From: an uncultured Actinomycetes bacterium
Lineage (GTDB): Bacteria > Actinomycetota > Actinomycetes > Nanopelagicales > Nanopelagicaceae
Length of the DNA stretch: 52,149 nt
Assembly: GCA_903838035.1 (NCBI GenBank)
Contig: CAILWW010000067.1
Coordinates: forward strand, 1 to 52,149
Direction: 5' to 3'
Shown one piece after another: positions 22,504 through 42,487 of this stretch (position 1 is its first letter; every line of letters starts with the position of its first letter). The notes beneath the pieces were generated by a model. The model searched no databases and had not been told where the DNA came from. It saw only the letters and a list, made by a program, of their open reading frames with translations. The position numbers were made by a program, and so were the translations under genes.

Positions 22504-22854
22504 GTGAAAGTTATGGAGATCATCATTCACGCCCGAAATGCACAGCTCGCAGAAGATTTCAAAGGAATAACTACAGAGAAGTTAAAGTCACTTGAAAGAT
22601 TCAGCGTCACCATCGAGGGCCTGAAAGTAGAGATTCAGCATGAGGCTAATCCGCGCTTTGGAAAGAGCTCTCATGAGGTAACTCTCACAACCCATGGCTC
22701 TGGTCCCTTTCTGCGTGCGGAAGGTAAGGGCTTCAATGATCTAGCCGCTTTTGACGAGGCGGTAAAAGCGTTACAACTTCAGATTAGAAAACTCCATGAA
22801 AAAACCAAAGATGTAAAACATCAATCAATTAAAACTCTTGATCCAATTGAGTAA
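22504..22854 (+). CDS. hpf: short ribosome hibernation promoting factor / RaiA-like protein
   Basis: A 116-residue HPF/RaiA domain protein. It has the beta-alpha-beta layout starting MEIIIHARNAQL, and the EIQHEANPRFGKSSHEVTLTTHG and DLAAFDEAVKALQLQIRKL segments. The start is GTG at 22504 with AAGGAG 4 nt upstream; an ATG at 22513 is the alternative. It lacks the C-terminal dimerisation domain found in the long HPF of most actinomycetes, so it is of the short type that acts without that domain. It also stands apart from the secA-comF region, where the gene often sits. Its 3' end overlaps the convergent nnrD by 26 nt. Confidence 0.85.
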   Translation: MKVMEIIIHARNAQLAEDFKGITTEKLKSLERFSVTIEGLKVEIQHEANPRFGKSSHEVTLTTHGSGPFLRAEGKGFNDLAAFDEAVKALQLQIRKLHEKTKDVKHQSIKTLDPIE

Positions 22855-23587
22855 GAGCGTCTAATACATCTGAGGCAACCACCGCACCATAACTCTTGGC
22901 GGCACGTTTACCGGCTGCGCCATGGAGCTTGAGGGCATAACCCAGCACCTCCATGATCTGTTCATCCCCCGTTGGCTGCCAGGAGGCGAGCAGCGATGCG
23001 GTGAGACCCGCCAAGATATCTCCGGTCCCCGCAGTAGAAAGCTCGGGGCCACCTTCATTATCGGTAATTAAATCTCCAGCTGGCGATGCAATCAGCGTTC
23101 CGGCGCCTTTAAGAATGACAAAGGCGCGAAAATCTCGCGCCATCGCCTTTGCGCATTCAACTCGATCTTCGCTCTCGTATCCCAATTCCCGAGCTTCGCC
23201 TTCGTGTGGGGTAATAACCACGACGCTATCTCCGGTAATTGTTTTAGCAAGGGGTATCGCAATGCTGTCGAGAACTAAAAAAGGAGCAAACGGAATAACT
23301 TTGAGGGCTGGGGAACCGGCGCCTATAACCCAAGCATCTGCGGTCAACTCCGAACCCTTATCAACTGGTACAACCTCAGGAAAACGAGCGAGAACCAAAT
23401 CTGTGGCTCGTGGGTTCTGATCAAAATACTTAATATATCCAGCCCCACCGCGAAGCGCGCCACCAACACAGAGCACTGCAGCTCCGGGGAACTCATTGGA
23501 GCCTGCTATGACACCGACAATTCCTCGAGAGTACTTATGCGAGGTAGGAGCTATCGGTGCTAAATATTTCGAGCGCTTATTGTCCAT
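22829..23587 (-). CDS. nnrD: ADP/ATP-dependent NAD(P)H-hydrate dehydratase
   Basis: A 252-residue ribokinase-fold enzyme (YjeF C-terminal domain family) that dehydrates damaged NAD(P)HX back to NAD(P)H. Visible are KYSRGIVGVIAGSNEFPGAA at the N-terminus (two short pieces), the nucleotide-binding ITPHEGEARELG, VILKGAGTLI, and the active-site STAGTGDILAGL. ATG at 23587 was chosen over 23611: TATGCT lies exactly 6 nt before it, and the upstream ATG shares bases with the divergent permease start. The epimerase half (NnrE/YjeF_N) is not fused and not nearby, so it must be elsewhere or absent. Confidence 0.9.
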   Translation of the reverse strand: MDNKRSKYLAPIAPTSHKYSRGIVGVIAGSNEFPGAAVLCVGGALRGGAGYIKYFDQNPRATDLVLARFPEVVPVDKGSELTADAWVIGAGSPALKVIPFAPFLVLDSIAIPLAKTITGDSVVVITPHEGEARELGYESEDRVECAKAMARDFRAFVILKGAGTLIASPAGDLITDNEGGPELSTAGTGDILAGLTASLLASWQPTGDEQIMEVLGYALKLHGAAGKRAAKSYGAVVASDVLDALTQLDQEF

Positions 23588-23593
23588 GTTATA

Positions 23594-23603
23594 AGCATAA
23601 GAT
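23594..23603. promoter_or_regulatory. overlapping divergent -10 boxes, nnrD and UPF0718 permease
   Basis: On the reverse strand TATGCT (23599-23594) is 6 nt before the nnrD ATG at 23587. On the forward strand TAAGAT (23598-23603) is 6 nt before the permease ATG at 23610. The two boxes overlap by two bases, so the polymerases should exclude one another. Confidence 0.5.
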
Positions 23604-23609
23604 GAATCC

Positions 23610-24830
23610 ATGGGAAAAGTCCTCGATGGCCTCGCTCAAGGCTGGTGGATGTTCTTCGATACTTTCTGGGCTTTGGTCTTTGGCTTCGCACTCTCCGGAG
23701 TAATTCAAGCCTTTGTGACGCGAAACCAGATGAAAACTTTGCTCGGCACGCATAAGCCGGCCGCAGTTGCTCGAGCCTCCTTCTTTGGCGCAGTGAGCTC
23801 TTCCTGTTCATATGCAGCAAGCGCGTTGGCAAAGAGTATTTTTACCAAAGGCGCAGATTTCACCGCATCGATGATCTTTATGTTTGCCAGCACAAATCTA
23901 GTTGTCGAATTAGGAATCGTTCTCTGGATACTTATTGGCTGGCAATTTGCACTTGCCGAGTTCGTCGGCGGAGCGATCATGATTCTTTTGCTCTGGTTAA
24001 TTCTGCCACGCGTGATTCCAGCACCGCTGGCGAGCAAGGCCAGGGGAGTTCGTTATCTCGATATGGCAACAGATGTAGTAAATACCCCGTGGCGAGCGAA
24101 GCTGAGAAAGCGCACTAGCTGGAAGAGCGCGGCCGGTTACACCATTGGTGATTTCACCATGATGCGCTTCGAGCTCATCATTGGTTTTGTAGTGGCCGGG
24201 CTGGTCTCTGCCCTCATTCCCACCTCATGGTGGCGCGCACTATTTCTTACCGGTCACGGTTTCTGGTCCTCGCTGGAGAATGCGATTATCGGACCATTTA
24301 TCGCCTTTATTAGTTTTGTCTGCTCGGTTGGTAATGTCCCACTTGCTGCGGCTTTATGGCACGGTGGAATCTCCTTTGGCGGAACAATCTCATTTATCTT
24401 CGCGGATTTGCTCTCATTGCCGCTGGTTCTGATCTACTTCAAGTATTACGGACGCGCGATTGCACTTCGGTTAGTCGTCGTATTTTGGATGGTGATGAGC
24501 GCCGCCGGACTTATTACTGAAGGAATTTACCGACTCCTCAAACTCTCACCAGCAAGAGAGGTAATGGCTATGGGCACGAGCCATGTCGGCCTCAATCGCA
24601 CCACAATTCTTGATGCCGCAGCACTCTTAATTTGTGTGCTCTTGGGCTGGCTCTATTTTTCGAAAGGTGAAGCAAGTGACGAGTTTGCCAAGGATTTAGT
24701 CTGCGGAATGCAGGTTCGCACAGCCGATGCTCCCGCAACCTATATCTATAAATCAACGACTTACTATTTTTGTATGCCTGGATGTAAGGAAGAATTCGAA
24801 AAAGATCCAGCAAAATTTATTGAAGCCTAA
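23610..24830 (+). CDS. UPF0718 (YraQ-type) permease with C-terminal YHS domain
   Basis: A 406-residue protein. Residues about 15-350 form an integral membrane permease with some ten hydrophobic segments, including the conserved AVSSSCSYAASALAKS loop and FISFVCSVGNVPLAAALW. Residues about 362-405 are a YHS domain with Cys pattern LVCGM and YYFCMPGCKEEF, which in other proteins binds metal ions. UPF0718 permeases are linked to export of arsenic or organic compounds, and YHS domains occur in copper P-type ATPases. The fusion suggests metal or metalloid handling (inference). Its stop overlaps the convergent lipoprotein gene by 4 nt. Confidence 0.85.
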   Translation: MGKVLDGLAQGWWMFFDTFWALVFGFALSGVIQAFVTRNQMKTLLGTHKPAAVARASFFGAVSSSCSYAASALAKSIFTKGADFTASMIFMFASTNLVVELGIVLWILIGWQFALAEFVGGAIMILLLWLILPRVIPAPLASKARGVRYLDMATDVVNTPWRAKLRKRTSWKSAAGYTIGDFTMMRFELIIGFVVAGLVSALIPTSWWRALFLTGHGFWSSLENAIIGPFIAFISFVCSVGNVPLAAALWHGGISFGGTISFIFADLLSLPLVLIYFKYYGRAIALRLVVVFWMVMSAAGLITEGIYRLLKLSPAREVMAMGTSHVGLNRTTILDAAALLICVLLGWLYFSKGEASDEFAKDLVCGMQVRTADAPATYIYKSTTYYFCMPGCKEEFEKDPAKFIEA

Positions 24831-39796: not shown

Positions 39797-40492
39797 ATGG
39801 AGCAGACAACCTCGTATGAGACCGCTATGCAGTGGGCGCGCGAGCTGGGTTTGGCTCCGGCGGTAGCGCACGCTTGGTTTCCCGAGGCAAAATTCACCAG
39901 CGCCCAGAAGAGTGAAAATTCACTCTCCCTCACCCGTGATGGTGAAGGCTCTTACGGAATAGGCCTTGGTCCAAATCCGTGGATTAATCCGGCCTGGCAG
40001 AAGTTCTCACTGCCTAAAGATTTTCCGCGCGAGCAGACTGATCATTTCACTCTGCAAGGTCAGTGGGCGGCTTATTCCATCGCACCACAAGCGATTACCC
40101 ATCTCAAACCAATTGAAATCCTCCCAGGGGAGCGCGATTTCGAAATTGAAAATTTCCTCAAAGCCCATGCTCCTGAGTCATCAGTTTTTCCTGGAAACCA
40201 GGAGATTCACTGGTGGTGCGCAATTCTTTCGGAAGCGAATGAAATCCAAGGGGTCGCTGCTATTACTCAATGGGAGTCAGGTGCTTATCTACTCTCATCA
40301 GTAGCAGTTGATTCTGCTTTACGGCAGGCAGGAATCGGCACCAAATTAATGGAGAGTGTTATCGCATCGGCTTTCAACCATGGAATAAGTGAGTTAATAC
40401 TTGCGGTCTTCTCCAAGAATATTGCCGCACGTAGGCTTTATGAAAAGTCGGGATTTACGCTACTGGGTGACTTTAATTATTTCGAACGCTGA
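39797..40492 (+). CDS. GNAT family N-acetyltransferase
   Basis: A 231-residue protein. The acetyltransferase domain occupies the C-terminal half: LLSSVAVDSALRQAGIGTKLMESVIASAF (V-D/R-x-x-G-I/G-T/A acetyl-CoA loop) and NIAARRLYEKSGFTLLGDF. The N-terminal 100 residues form a separate domain of unknown type that may define the substrate. ATG at 39797 is supported by a -10 box at 6 nt; an ATG at 39830 is possible. The substrate is unknown. Confidence 0.85.
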   Translation: MEQTTSYETAMQWARELGLAPAVAHAWFPEAKFTSAQKSENSLSLTRDGEGSYGIGLGPNPWINPAWQKFSLPKDFPREQTDHFTLQGQWAAYSIAPQAITHLKPIEILPGERDFEIENFLKAHAPESSVFPGNQEIHWWCAILSEANEIQGVAAITQWESGAYLLSSVAVDSALRQAGIGTKLMESVIASAFNHGISELILAVFSKNIAARRLYEKSGFTLLGDFNYFER

Positions 40493-40504
40493 GTGCTGGC
40501 ACTC
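40491..40504. repeat. inverted repeat GAGTGC-TG-GCACTC
   Basis: A perfect 6+6 inverted repeat begins within the stop codon of the GNAT gene. It has no T run after it, so it is not a typical terminator. The half-sites recall the CIRCE element, but the orientation and spacing are wrong for HrcA binding. Confidence 0.4.
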
Positions 40505-40599: not shown

Positions 40600-40785
40600 A
40601 TGCAATTAGCACTCATCAACCTCAATCATCCAGCCCACTATTTTTCATTTGGGCCTTTCGCTATATCTGGCGGCAACTTAGCAATCATCATTGCGATGTG
40701 CGTGATATTTATCGCAGCACTCTTTATACCGTTTCCACACTCTAACAATTTTTCGCAAGATGATAAGAAGGAGGATCGCAAATGA
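40600..40785 (+). CDS. small single-pass membrane protein of the cytochrome b operon
   Basis: A 61-residue protein with one TM segment (about 23-44, GGNLAIIIAMCVIFIAALFIPF) and a charged, Lys/Asp-rich C-terminal tail (FSQDDKKEDRK). It is followed by the cytochrome b gene with a 4-nt ATGA overlap, so the two are translated together. A small subunit of the complex is likely from its position; compare the single-helix subunits of bc1 and b6f complexes. GGAGAAG lies just upstream of the ATG. I recognise no family. Confidence 0.68.
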   Translation: MQLALINLNHPAHYFSFGPFAISGGNLAIIIAMCVIFIAALFIPFPHSNNFSQDDKKEDRK

Positions 40786-41405
40786 GCAGCCAAAGCTGGA
40801 CTGGTCGCGCACGCAGAGCGACCCTCGAAAAATTTAAGCCCGAAGATCTCCTTCCCGAAGAGCAACCCGCATATGTTGCATCGTGGGTCTATGTATTTGG
40901 CGTAGCAACAATCGCGGCGCTGGTAATGCTTATTGCCTCTGGTCTTGTGCTTACGCTCAATGGACCTGCTTGGTGGCACACCTCAAGTGTTGGTCACTAT
41001 GTGAACTCGGTTCACTTATGGAGCGTTGAACTCTTCTTCGTCTTTATGGTCGTTCACCTTTGGGGAAAGTTCTGGATGGCAGCTTGGCGCGGACGTCGCC
41101 TCGCCACCTGGATCACTGGCGTCGTGGCATTCATGGCTTCGATCATGACTGCATTTACTGGCTATCTCATTCAGACCAACTTTGATTCACAATGGATTGC
41201 CAGCGAAGCAAAAGATGGCTTTAACTCCATGGGCATAGGCGCATATTTCAATGCCCTTAATACCGGCCAAGCAATCTTGCTTCACGTTTCCCTCTTGCCA
41301 CTTGCCCTCGGTGGAATCGTTGCCTGGCACATCATCTTGGTACGCAGAAAAGGCGTTGTTCCTCCCATCGATAACGATGTCACCATTGAAGGGAGTTCCA
41401 AGTGA
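40782..41405 (+). CDS. cytochrome b N-terminal domain protein (b6-like)
   Basis: A 207-residue integral membrane protein with four TM helices, equal to the N-terminal half of cytochrome b. The haem ligands are visible: His78 and His92 in helix B (VHLWSVELFFVFMVVHLW; 13 residues between) and His168 and His183 in helix D (LLHVSLLPLALGGIVAWH; 14 between, the spacing of b6-type proteins). The glycine/aromatic helix pattern fits two b haems. The next gene overlaps by 4 nt (GTGA). No C-terminal cytochrome b half with a quinol site PEWY motif follows; the partner is the 315-residue protein below. Confidence 0.87.
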   Translation: MSSQSWTGRARRATLEKFKPEDLLPEEQPAYVASWVYVFGVATIAALVMLIASGLVLTLNGPAWWHTSSVGHYVNSVHLWSVELFFVFMVVHLWGKFWMAAWRGRRLATWITGVVAFMASIMTAFTGYLIQTNFDSQWIASEAKDGFNSMGIGAYFNALNTGQAILLHVSLLPLALGGIVAWHIILVRRKGVVPPIDNDVTIEGSSK

Positions 41406-42349
41406 GCTCAATGATGAAAGTAGATCCCGCCAAAAAATGGTCCGGTCCAATGCGTCCATACGATCTCGTTAAAGAGATTGTCGTGGCGATAGTTGTAATT
41501 GGTCTGCTGGCTTGCGGACTTGCCGCACTCTTTAGTTCACCCGATGAAAAAGCGGTCACGCTTAAGTCATGGGTAACCGCGGCCCCAGCTGACTTTGCTC
41601 AAGTTGCAACCGGGGAATTAGCGGGAACCACCGGTTCTGCTGGCTATGGCGCCCCATATAACACTGCAGCTAAAGGCCAGCACTTTGGATTCATTAAGTT
41701 GCAAGATTGGGCTGGGGTTCGTATCCCGATTAATCCAGCTAATTCCTTTGTTGTGGAACCACTATTGATTTCTAATGATGCGACCGCAATCGCTGCTGTT
41801 AATACTTGGAAGGCAGCAACGGCAGATCAGCGGGGCAAGTGGGCTAACGCTTATGAAGGAGCCCTGACTAAAGCGGGGGATAAGACCACGCTTCCGGATC
41901 CCAATAACTCCTTTGGACCAGTTCCGGCGATGATTGATGGACTTTCTATGATGGCGGCATCTGGTGCGCTAGATGGCGCGCTCTTAACCAGCGATAGCAC
42001 TCTGCCCACCAACTTCACCAAGCCAATGCTCTTCCTTGCCGATAGCGATGGTTACTTTGGCGCCTTGGCGACCAAACAGCATCTCGGCGGAGATCAATGG
42101 GGAGTTATGAATGAGACCGGCTCTTGGCCAGGACAATCTTGGCTCTGGTTATTTTCGTTCTGGTATCAAATCGATCCATTTAAATCCTCGGACAATGCCG
42201 ACACCATCATCATGTTAATTATGGCTCTCTTAACCCTGGCTTTGATGTTCTTGCCACTCTTGCCCATCATCCGCCGAATCCCTTACAAGATTCCGGTGCA
42301 CCGTTTGATTTGGCGAAACTGGTATCGAAGTCCTGCAAGTAAGCAGTAA
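41402..42349 (+). CDS. membrane-anchored partner of the cytochrome b protein, unknown
   Basis: A 315-residue protein. The start is GTG at 41402, overlapping the cytochrome b stop. Residues about 26-48 (IVVAIVVIGLLACGLAALF) form a first TM helix, residues about 50-262 form a large domain predicted outside the cytoplasm, and residues about 266-292 (TIIMLIMALLTLALMFLPLLPII) form a second TM segment before a basic tail. There is no CxxCH haem c motif and no Rieske cysteine/histidine pair; the only Cys is inside TM1. The domain holds acidic and Trp-rich patches. It could be the quinone- or acceptor-facing subunit. I cannot assign a family. Confidence 0.72.
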   Translation: MSSMMKVDPAKKWSGPMRPYDLVKEIVVAIVVIGLLACGLAALFSSPDEKAVTLKSWVTAAPADFAQVATGELAGTTGSAGYGAPYNTAAKGQHFGFIKLQDWAGVRIPINPANSFVVEPLLISNDATAIAAVNTWKAATADQRGKWANAYEGALTKAGDKTTLPDPNNSFGPVPAMIDGLSMMAASGALDGALLTSDSTLPTNFTKPMLFLADSDGYFGALATKQHLGGDQWGVMNETGSWPGQSWLWLFSFWYQIDPFKSSDNADTIIMLIMALLTLALMFLPLLPIIRRIPYKIPVHRLIWRNWYRSPASKQ

Positions 42350-42367: not shown

Positions 42368-42402
42368 AAAAAAGCCCCGAGATTAATTTCTCGGGGCTTT
42401 TC
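42368..42402 (+). terminator. intrinsic terminator after the cytochrome b operon
   Basis: A GC-rich hairpin AAAGCCCCGAGA-TTAAT-TTCTCGGGGCTTTT with a 12-bp stem including flanking A-T pairs. The A run before and T run after make it usable in both directions, so it can also end transcription coming from tRNA-Leu on the reverse strand. Confidence 0.92.
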
Positions 42403-42406
42403 CAAG

Positions 42407-42487
42407 TGCGGAAGGTGGGACTTGAACCCACACGCCGTAAAGCACAGGTTCCTAAGACCTGCGTGTCTGCCATTTCACCACTCCCGC
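42407..42487 (-). tRNA. tRNA-Leu (anticodon TAG)
   Basis: An 81-nt class II tRNA on the reverse strand. The acceptor stem is GCGGGAG/CTTCCGC (one G-T pair), the anticodon stem-loop is CAGGT-CTTAGGA-ACCTG (anticodon TAG), then a long variable arm, then a T arm GTGGG-TTCAAGT-CCCAC. The discriminator is A; CCA is not encoded. Confidence 0.94.

What the first reader, a model, noticed from the sequence alone, without database searches (positions are those of the whole stretch)
40600..42349. A three-gene cytochrome b module with no Rieske, no c-type cytochrome and no normal C-terminal half
The operon codes for a 61-residue single-helix protein, a four-helix b6-like cytochrome b (His78/His92 and His168/His183), and a 315-residue protein with a large domain predicted outside and two TM helices. 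Each overlap is 4 nt, so the subunits are translated together. A normal bc complex needs a subunit IV-like half with a PEWY-type quinol site, a Rieske protein and a cytochrome c. None is here, and the 315-residue protein has no CxxCH and no Fe-S ligands. This may be a distinct quinol-linked electron transfer complex whose donor or acceptor is unknown.
Basis: partly seen in the sequence, partly recalled or inferred. Interest (0 to 1): 0.7.

Follow-up and report, generated by a model that had tools for sequence, protein, structure and literature searches.

The report
Rieske-less cytochrome b6 module in Actinomycetota
Three overlapping genes encode a conserved but undescribed membrane electron-transfer complex, found in hundreds of actinobacterial species, that looks like the haem-carrying core of respiratory complex III without its usual iron-sulphur and cytochrome c partners and with a large new outer domain instead.

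Summary
Genes A (61 aa, one helix), B (207 aa, b6-type cytochrome b) and C (315 aa, two helices around a ~220-residue outside domain) overlap by 4 nt each and end in a terminator-like hairpin. The order A-B-C is conserved in about 80 fetched loci from Actinomycetota; at least 526 genome stretches encode C. The four haem histidines, paired helix glycines and Arg188 (equivalent of b6 Arg207) are invariant in B. C has no haem or Fe-S motif in any of 64 members. B and C are fused in three species, so C sits where the C-terminal half of cytochrome b should be; its homology to subunit IV is suggested, not proven. PEWY is absent; an invariant NET(G)x[YW]PGQxWxW replaces it. The genome has a separate qcrCAB, and all 34 module genomes checked have another cytochrome b. 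In non-freshwater lineages the module lies downstream of DosR/OsdR-like boxes (22/43 versus 26/309 control promoters) or beside ctaA/ctaB/ctaG. Best reading: an accessory dihaem menaquinone-reactive complex, induced at low oxygen in many lineages, whose partner outside the membrane is unknown. A DoxX-Rieske partner was tested and not supported in general.

The parts
40600..40785 (+). gene A: 61-aa single-helix subunit (helix about 27-45); family hallmarks Leu8, Ser23, Asn26, Phe37, Ala40, PFP44-46
   Evidence: found upstream of B in nearly all loci
40782..41405 (+). gene B: 207-aa b6-type cytochrome b; haem ligands His78/His92 and His168/His183; glycine pairs G40/G54 and G113/G127; Arg188 at His183+5
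41402..42349 (+). gene C: 315-aa subunit; helix 22-44, helical outside domain about 45-265, NETGSWPGQSWLW at 237-249, helix 266-287, basic cytoplasmic tail
42370..42401 (+). terminator-like hairpin AAAAGCCCCGAG-ATTAATTT-CTCGGGGCTTTT that would end the A-B-C transcript
   Evidence: read directly; missed by the consensus scan, which asks for a longer T-run
40491..40504 (+). perfect palindrome GAGTGCTGGCACTC upstream of A; similar elements lie upstream of A in several freshwater relatives; function unknown
   Evidence: only exact copy in this genome
40559..40572 (.). palindrome CGAGGAATTCCTCG about 28 nt upstream of the A start codon; possible operator, not tested
   Evidence: read

Best explanation
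A-B-C is an accessory dihaem cytochrome b complex of Actinomycetota built like the b6/subunit IV core of a cytochrome bc complex but without Rieske or cytochrome c. B carries haems bL and bH (shown by motif). B and C together form the two-part cytochrome b; C supplies helices E and F with a ~200-residue helical domain inserted in the ef loop on the outside (shown: position, fusion, topology; inferred: homology). Menaquinone binds at the inner site near Arg188 of B and Asp21/Lys24/Glu25 of C (inferred from b6f). On the outside the invariant NET-PGQ-WxW segment of C replaces the PEWY motif and lies near haem bL (inferred). With no Rieske there is no built-in bifurcation, so the most likely action is one-electron transfer across the membrane between the menaquinone pool and an unknown outside partner docked on the C domain, used to balance the quinone pool when oxygen is low. 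The cell's main complex III stays in place beside it.
For: b6 family match with all four histidines, glycine pairs and Arg188 invariant in 53 B proteins. A-B-C order conserved across Streptomyces, Amycolatopsis, Acidimicrobiia, Solirubrobacterales, Intrasporangiaceae and freshwater clades. B-C fusion in L007, L075 and L084. C topology and invariant Y20 D21 K24 E25 and N237 E238 P243 G244 Q245 W247 W249. Fused B-C model matches cytochrome b chains of bc1 over ~450 columns, E 3e-4. The NCBIfam model hit by most C members is an archaeal cytochrome b, and in the window's C the match falls in its C-terminal half. Trimmed C aligns to subunit IV in register, score 25.4 against a null maximum of 22.5. 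Separate actinobacterial QcrB over the family cut-off in 31 of 34 module genomes, another cytochrome b in the rest. DosR/OsdR-like boxes upstream of A in 22 of 43 non-freshwater loci against 26 of 309 control promoters (consensus from PMC5069765), plus Usp, PPOx, Hsp20, phosphoketolase, PPDK and LuxR-regulator neighbours or ctaA/ctaG.
Against: Profile comparison of C with subunit IV is weak, and anchored to B it does worse than reversed controls against full cytochrome b. C alone has no fold match in PDB; the fused model is of modest quality (pLDDT 74, TM 0.27). The window's own copy has no DosR-like box, so the low-oxygen role may not hold in freshwater lineages. The partner and the direction of electron flow are not shown. 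Related loci are not independent, so the box statistics are inflated.
Confidence: 0.55

Rival explanations
1. It is a complete cytochrome bc-type complex whose Rieske protein is encoded elsewhere (for example the DoxX-Rieske or the secreted Rieske of this genome), running an ordinary Q cycle.
For: The genome holds four Rieske-domain proteins, of which only one belongs to qcrCAB. In the family sample all 18 module genomes carry full-length DoxX-Rieske against 17 of 43 others, p 3e-6.
Against: In the order sample the link weakens (17/18 against 29/43, p 0.02) with one module genome lacking it. Across the phylum, module genomes G080, G085, G094 and G220 have no DoxX-Rieske match. The secreted Rieske shows no association (12/18 against 33/43). 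No Rieske gene was recognised beside the module in the loci examined.
Confidence: 0.17
2. It works in the reverse direction: it takes electrons from an outside donor (superoxide, a thiol or a lithotrophic substrate) and reduces menaquinone, as the four-helix superoxide oxidase CybB does.
For: A dihaem four-helix b with a conserved inner quinone-site arginine and no Rieske would suffice for quinone reduction; stress-type neighbours. Acidithrix ferrooxidans, an iron oxidiser, has the fused form.
Against: B is of the b6 family, with no cytochrome b561 match in Pfam. DosR-type control suggests low-oxygen rather than oxidative conditions. No donor protein is co-encoded.
Confidence: 0.15
3. C is not a cytochrome b half at all but an unrelated domain protein, and the module serves haem A or cytochrome oxidase assembly (for example electron supply to haem A synthase).
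For: In about 18 Acidimicrobiia loci the module sits in a tlpA-like, ctaB, ctaA, A-B-C ... ctaG stretch. Profile homology of C to subunit IV is weak.
Against: In other lineages, including this window, no oxidase-assembly gene is nearby. Many family members lack the module.
Confidence: 0.1

Closest known systems
Cytochrome b6f core (PetB + subunit IV/PetD) and split bc complexes of bacteria
   Same: B: four helices, His pairs 13 and 14 residues apart, glycine pairs, Arg at His+5 as b6 Arg207; two-gene split at the same place; C topology like helices E and F
   Different: No Rieske or c-type cytochrome; no PEWY; no third helix in C; ~200-residue insertion; B at 52 bits or less against curated cut-offs of 290-740
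ExtP of Geobacter (NF040969)
   Same: Best NCBIfam match of B (52 bits); small split b-type cytochrome in a non-photosynthetic organism (PMC5877670)
   Different: ExtP is encoded with a Rieske protein (ExtO), a membrane protein (ExtQ) and several multihaem cytochromes c; none are here; far below the curated cut-off of 290
Actinobacterial QcrCAB (bcc complex III)
   Same: Same organism, dihaem cytochrome b, menaquinone as substrate (by established knowledge)
   Different: Present separately on contig 29; B scores 18.8 bits against a 500-bit cut-off; no Rieske, no cytochrome c
DosR/DevR (OsdR) dormancy regulon of Mycobacterium and Streptomyces
   Same: GGG(A/C)C-N4-G(G/T)CCC boxes upstream of A and typical regulon neighbours in several lineages (PMC5069765)
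   Different: A text search of the OsdR paper found no mention of a cytochrome; the window's own copy lacks the box

Membership tests
Cytochrome bc / b6f complex | Four-helix cytochrome b with two bis-histidine haems | tested here: met
   H78, H92, H168, H183 and G40, G54, G113, G127 invariant in 53 sequences; PF13631 and PF00033 over cut-off
Cytochrome bc / b6f complex | C-terminal half or subunit IV homologous to PF00032 | tested here: inconclusive
   No PF00032 hit in 64 members at E <= 1; weak in-register profile match above 160 nulls, but anchored test fails; fusions and topology agree
Cytochrome bc / b6f complex | PEWY-type Qo motif | tested here: not met
   Literal motif absent; invariant N237 E238 P243 G244 Q245 W247 W249 instead
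Cytochrome bc / b6f complex | Rieske 2Fe-2S protein | tested here: not met
   None in the operon or recognised in examined neighbourhoods; no Rieske motif in C; supply from elsewhere not excluded
Cytochrome bc / b6f complex | c-type cytochrome (c1, f or cc) | tested here: not met
   No CxxCH in A, B or C of any member
Cytochrome bc / b6f complex | Inner quinone-site arginine (b6 Arg207) | tested here: met
   Arg188 at His183+5 invariant in 53 sequences; role of Arg207 from PMC9162462
Actinobacterial QcrB (NF050120) | Score over the curated cut-off of 500 bits | tested here: not met
   B 18.8 bits; the genome's true QcrB on contig 29 scores 771
ExtP (NF040969) / cytochrome b6 PRK03735 | Score over curated cut-offs of 290 and 325 bits | tested here: not met
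   52.4 and 47.7 bits
DosR/OsdR regulon | DosR/OsdR box in the promoter | tested here: inconclusive
   Met in 22 of 43 non-freshwater relatives against 26 of 309 control promoters; absent upstream of the window's A
Cytochrome bc / b6f complex | Quinol oxidation or quinone reduction activity | not testable with these tools
   Needs purified protein

The most novel reading that the evidence does not exclude
A cytochrome b complex that does its outer-site chemistry without any Rieske cluster, with the helical domain of C acting as the new partner interface, forming a distinct class of oxygen-responsive menaquinone complex across Actinomycetota.
Probability: 0.35. Interest if true: 0.8.

Novelty: new variant of a known kind. 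Interest (0 to 1): 0.6.

Why it matters
Characterised cytochrome bc complexes are understood through their Rieske partner at the outer quinol site. A widespread b6-type core that has kept the haems and the inner-site arginine but dropped Rieske, cytochrome c and PEWY would be a natural test of what the core can do alone, and would add a respiratory complex to Streptomyces, Acidimicrobiia and abundant freshwater actinobacteria. The DosR/OsdR-like boxes make a low-oxygen role directly testable in cultured, harmless strains.

Tried and rejected
(1) DoxX-Rieske as obligatory partner: strong in the family sample (18/18 against 17/43), weaker in the order sample, absent in module genomes elsewhere in the phylum; rejected as a general partner. 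(2) Secreted Rieske: no association. (3) hmmsearch of the C and B-C profiles against PDB sequences: nothing. (4) Foldseek of C alone: nothing. (5) hhalign of B plus trimmed C against full-length cytochrome b: extends into helix E, but reversed-C controls score higher, so no evidence. (6) First mixed alignment of fused, B and C rows was misaligned; replaced by A5. (7) Viral contigs and plasmids: no C homologue. (8) Literature searches found no description of the complex. (9) Whether MAGs labelled Acidobacteriota really lie outside Actinomycetota could not be settled; the L068 upstream region is nearly identical to acidimicrobial L062 and L069. (10) The freshwater palindrome has no second exact copy in the genome.

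Full report
What is there. Three ORFs, A 40600-40785, B 40782-41405 and C 41402-42349, overlap by ATGA and GTGA. A hairpin with a T-tail follows at 42370-42401 (read) and a tRNA-Leu gene lies on the other strand at 42406-42487, so the unit is most likely a three-gene operon. The window is contig 67 of a 1.35 Mb, 87% complete actinobacterial genome.

B is a true b6-type cytochrome. It passes the Pfam cut-offs of PF13631 and PF00033 and is nearest to ExtP and cytochrome b6 among NCBIfam models, though far below their curated cut-offs. In 53 homologues the four histidines, the glycine pairs G40/G54 and G113/G127, and Arg188 are invariant. Arg188 lies five residues after the last histidine, exactly as b6 Arg207, which is placed on a proton path to the inner quinone site (PMC9162462). 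The two arginines that flank the first histidine in b6 (IRSIH/RSVHRW) are Asn75 (invariant) and Leu79 here.

C is new to the libraries. It matches no Pfam or NCBIfam model above a cut-off and nothing in PDB by sequence. It has two helices with basic cytoplasmic ends and a ~220-residue acidic outside stretch, predicted as a helical domain (pLDDT 83) without fold match. The best conserved segments are Y20 D21 K24 E25 before helix 1 and N237 E238 P243 G244 Q245 W247 W249 before helix 2. Most members have no cysteine and none has a CxxCH or Rieske motif.

Is C a cytochrome b C-terminal half? For: it always follows B; B and C are one ORF in L007, L075 and L084; its topology fits helices E and F; the NCBIfam model matched by most members is an archaeal cytochrome b, and in the window's C the match lies at model positions 287-342; trimmed C aligns to subunit IV with PYD21 on PND35 and the tryptophan segment on PEWY, above all column-shuffled and block-shuffled nulls (25.4 to 25.9 against at most 22.5); the fused model aligns to bc1 cytochrome b along its length (E 3e-4) but with a TM-score of only 0.27. 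Against: the same test anchored on B gives higher scores to reversed C. I therefore call the homology likely but unproven.

Distribution. C was found in 11 of 296 genomes sampled across the phylum, counting the window's genome and one marginal match, and in 18 of 61 of its own family; at least 526 genome stretches encode a relative. The records include Streptomyces, Kitasatospora, Amycolatopsis, Intrasporangium, Acidithrix, Acidimicrobiaceae, Solirubrobacterales and freshwater actinobacteria. It is patchy even within a genus, which suggests an accessory function. All 34 module genomes checked also have another cytochrome b: 31 an actinobacterial QcrB over the cut-off and three a different type. 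In this genome qcrB (528 aa), qcrA (330 aa), a 268-aa gene in the qcrC position and a following 221-aa gene lie together on contig 29.

Context and regulation. No neighbour is conserved throughout. In Acidimicrobiia the module stands between ctaB-ctaA and ctaG with a TlpA-like thioredoxin (ctaB assigned by eye). In other soil lineages the neighbours include Usp, PPOx, Hsp20, phosphoketolase, pyruvate phosphate dikinase, zinc dehydrogenases and LuxR-type response regulators, the kind of genes grouped around OsdR in S. coelicolor (PMC5069765). I then tested the promoters. With the pattern GGGMCNNNNGKCCC and one mismatch allowed, 22 of 43 non-freshwater A promoters have a site against 26 of 309 promoters of other genes in the same loci (Fisher p 1e-10; exact matches 5/43 against 3/309). 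The loci are partly related, so the p-value is optimistic, but the sites occur in several lineages (L049, L052, L065, L089 and Acidimicrobiia), most of them 80-120 nt upstream. The pattern was fixed after an initial scan with the DosR consensus and after reading the published OsdR sites. The window's own copy has no such site.

Mechanism. Shown: two b haems' ligands, conserved inner arginine, no Rieske or c haem in the module, separate complex III. Inferred: menaquinone at the inner site; the NET-PGQ-WxW segment at the outer site; transfer of single electrons between the quinone pool and an outside partner bound to the C domain; use at low oxygen in the lineages with the box. Without a Rieske cluster the complex cannot bifurcate electrons by itself in the known way. 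A Rieske supplied from elsewhere was tested by co-occurrence and is not supported in general, but not excluded for the freshwater family.

Verdict. The statement that there is no C-terminal half probably needs to be replaced by 'a strongly altered C-terminal half with a large outside insertion'. I found no published description in the library searched.

Noticed in passing
window 22829-24830; L027 and L029: In relatives L027 and L029 the module lies between an NAD(P)HX-dehydratase-like gene and a permease gene (with one extra gene); in this window those two genes are directly adjacent (overlapping by 2 nt) and the module is about 16 kb away. The module seems to change sites between relatives.
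   Followed up: partly
L100:3519-4382 (G000 contig 74): A DoxX-Rieske fusion protein (287 aa) with a complete CTHxGC...CPCHG motif; present in all 18 module genomes of the family sample but also in many without the module.
   Followed up: yes
L101:3170-3649 (G000 contig 10): A 159-aa exported-looking Rieske protein whose cluster motif lacks the usual disulphide cysteines (CTHMG...CPAHG).
   Followed up: partly
L112:4429-5610 (Intrasporangium chromatireducens): Another unusual one-piece cytochrome b with WPFWWMF where PDWY is expected, downstream of a multicopper-oxidase-like gene.
   Followed up: no
L111:3121-5807 (G094): A Rieske gene followed by a cytochrome b with a CxxCH haem c motif near its C-terminus and a separate protein with two CxxCH motifs, in a genome that also carries two copies of the A-B-C module (L014, L016).
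   Followed up: no
window 40491-40504 and freshwater relatives L021-L033, L042, L047: Palindromic element near GAGTGCTAGCACTC upstream of A in many freshwater copies, in place of the DosR-like box.
   Followed up: partly
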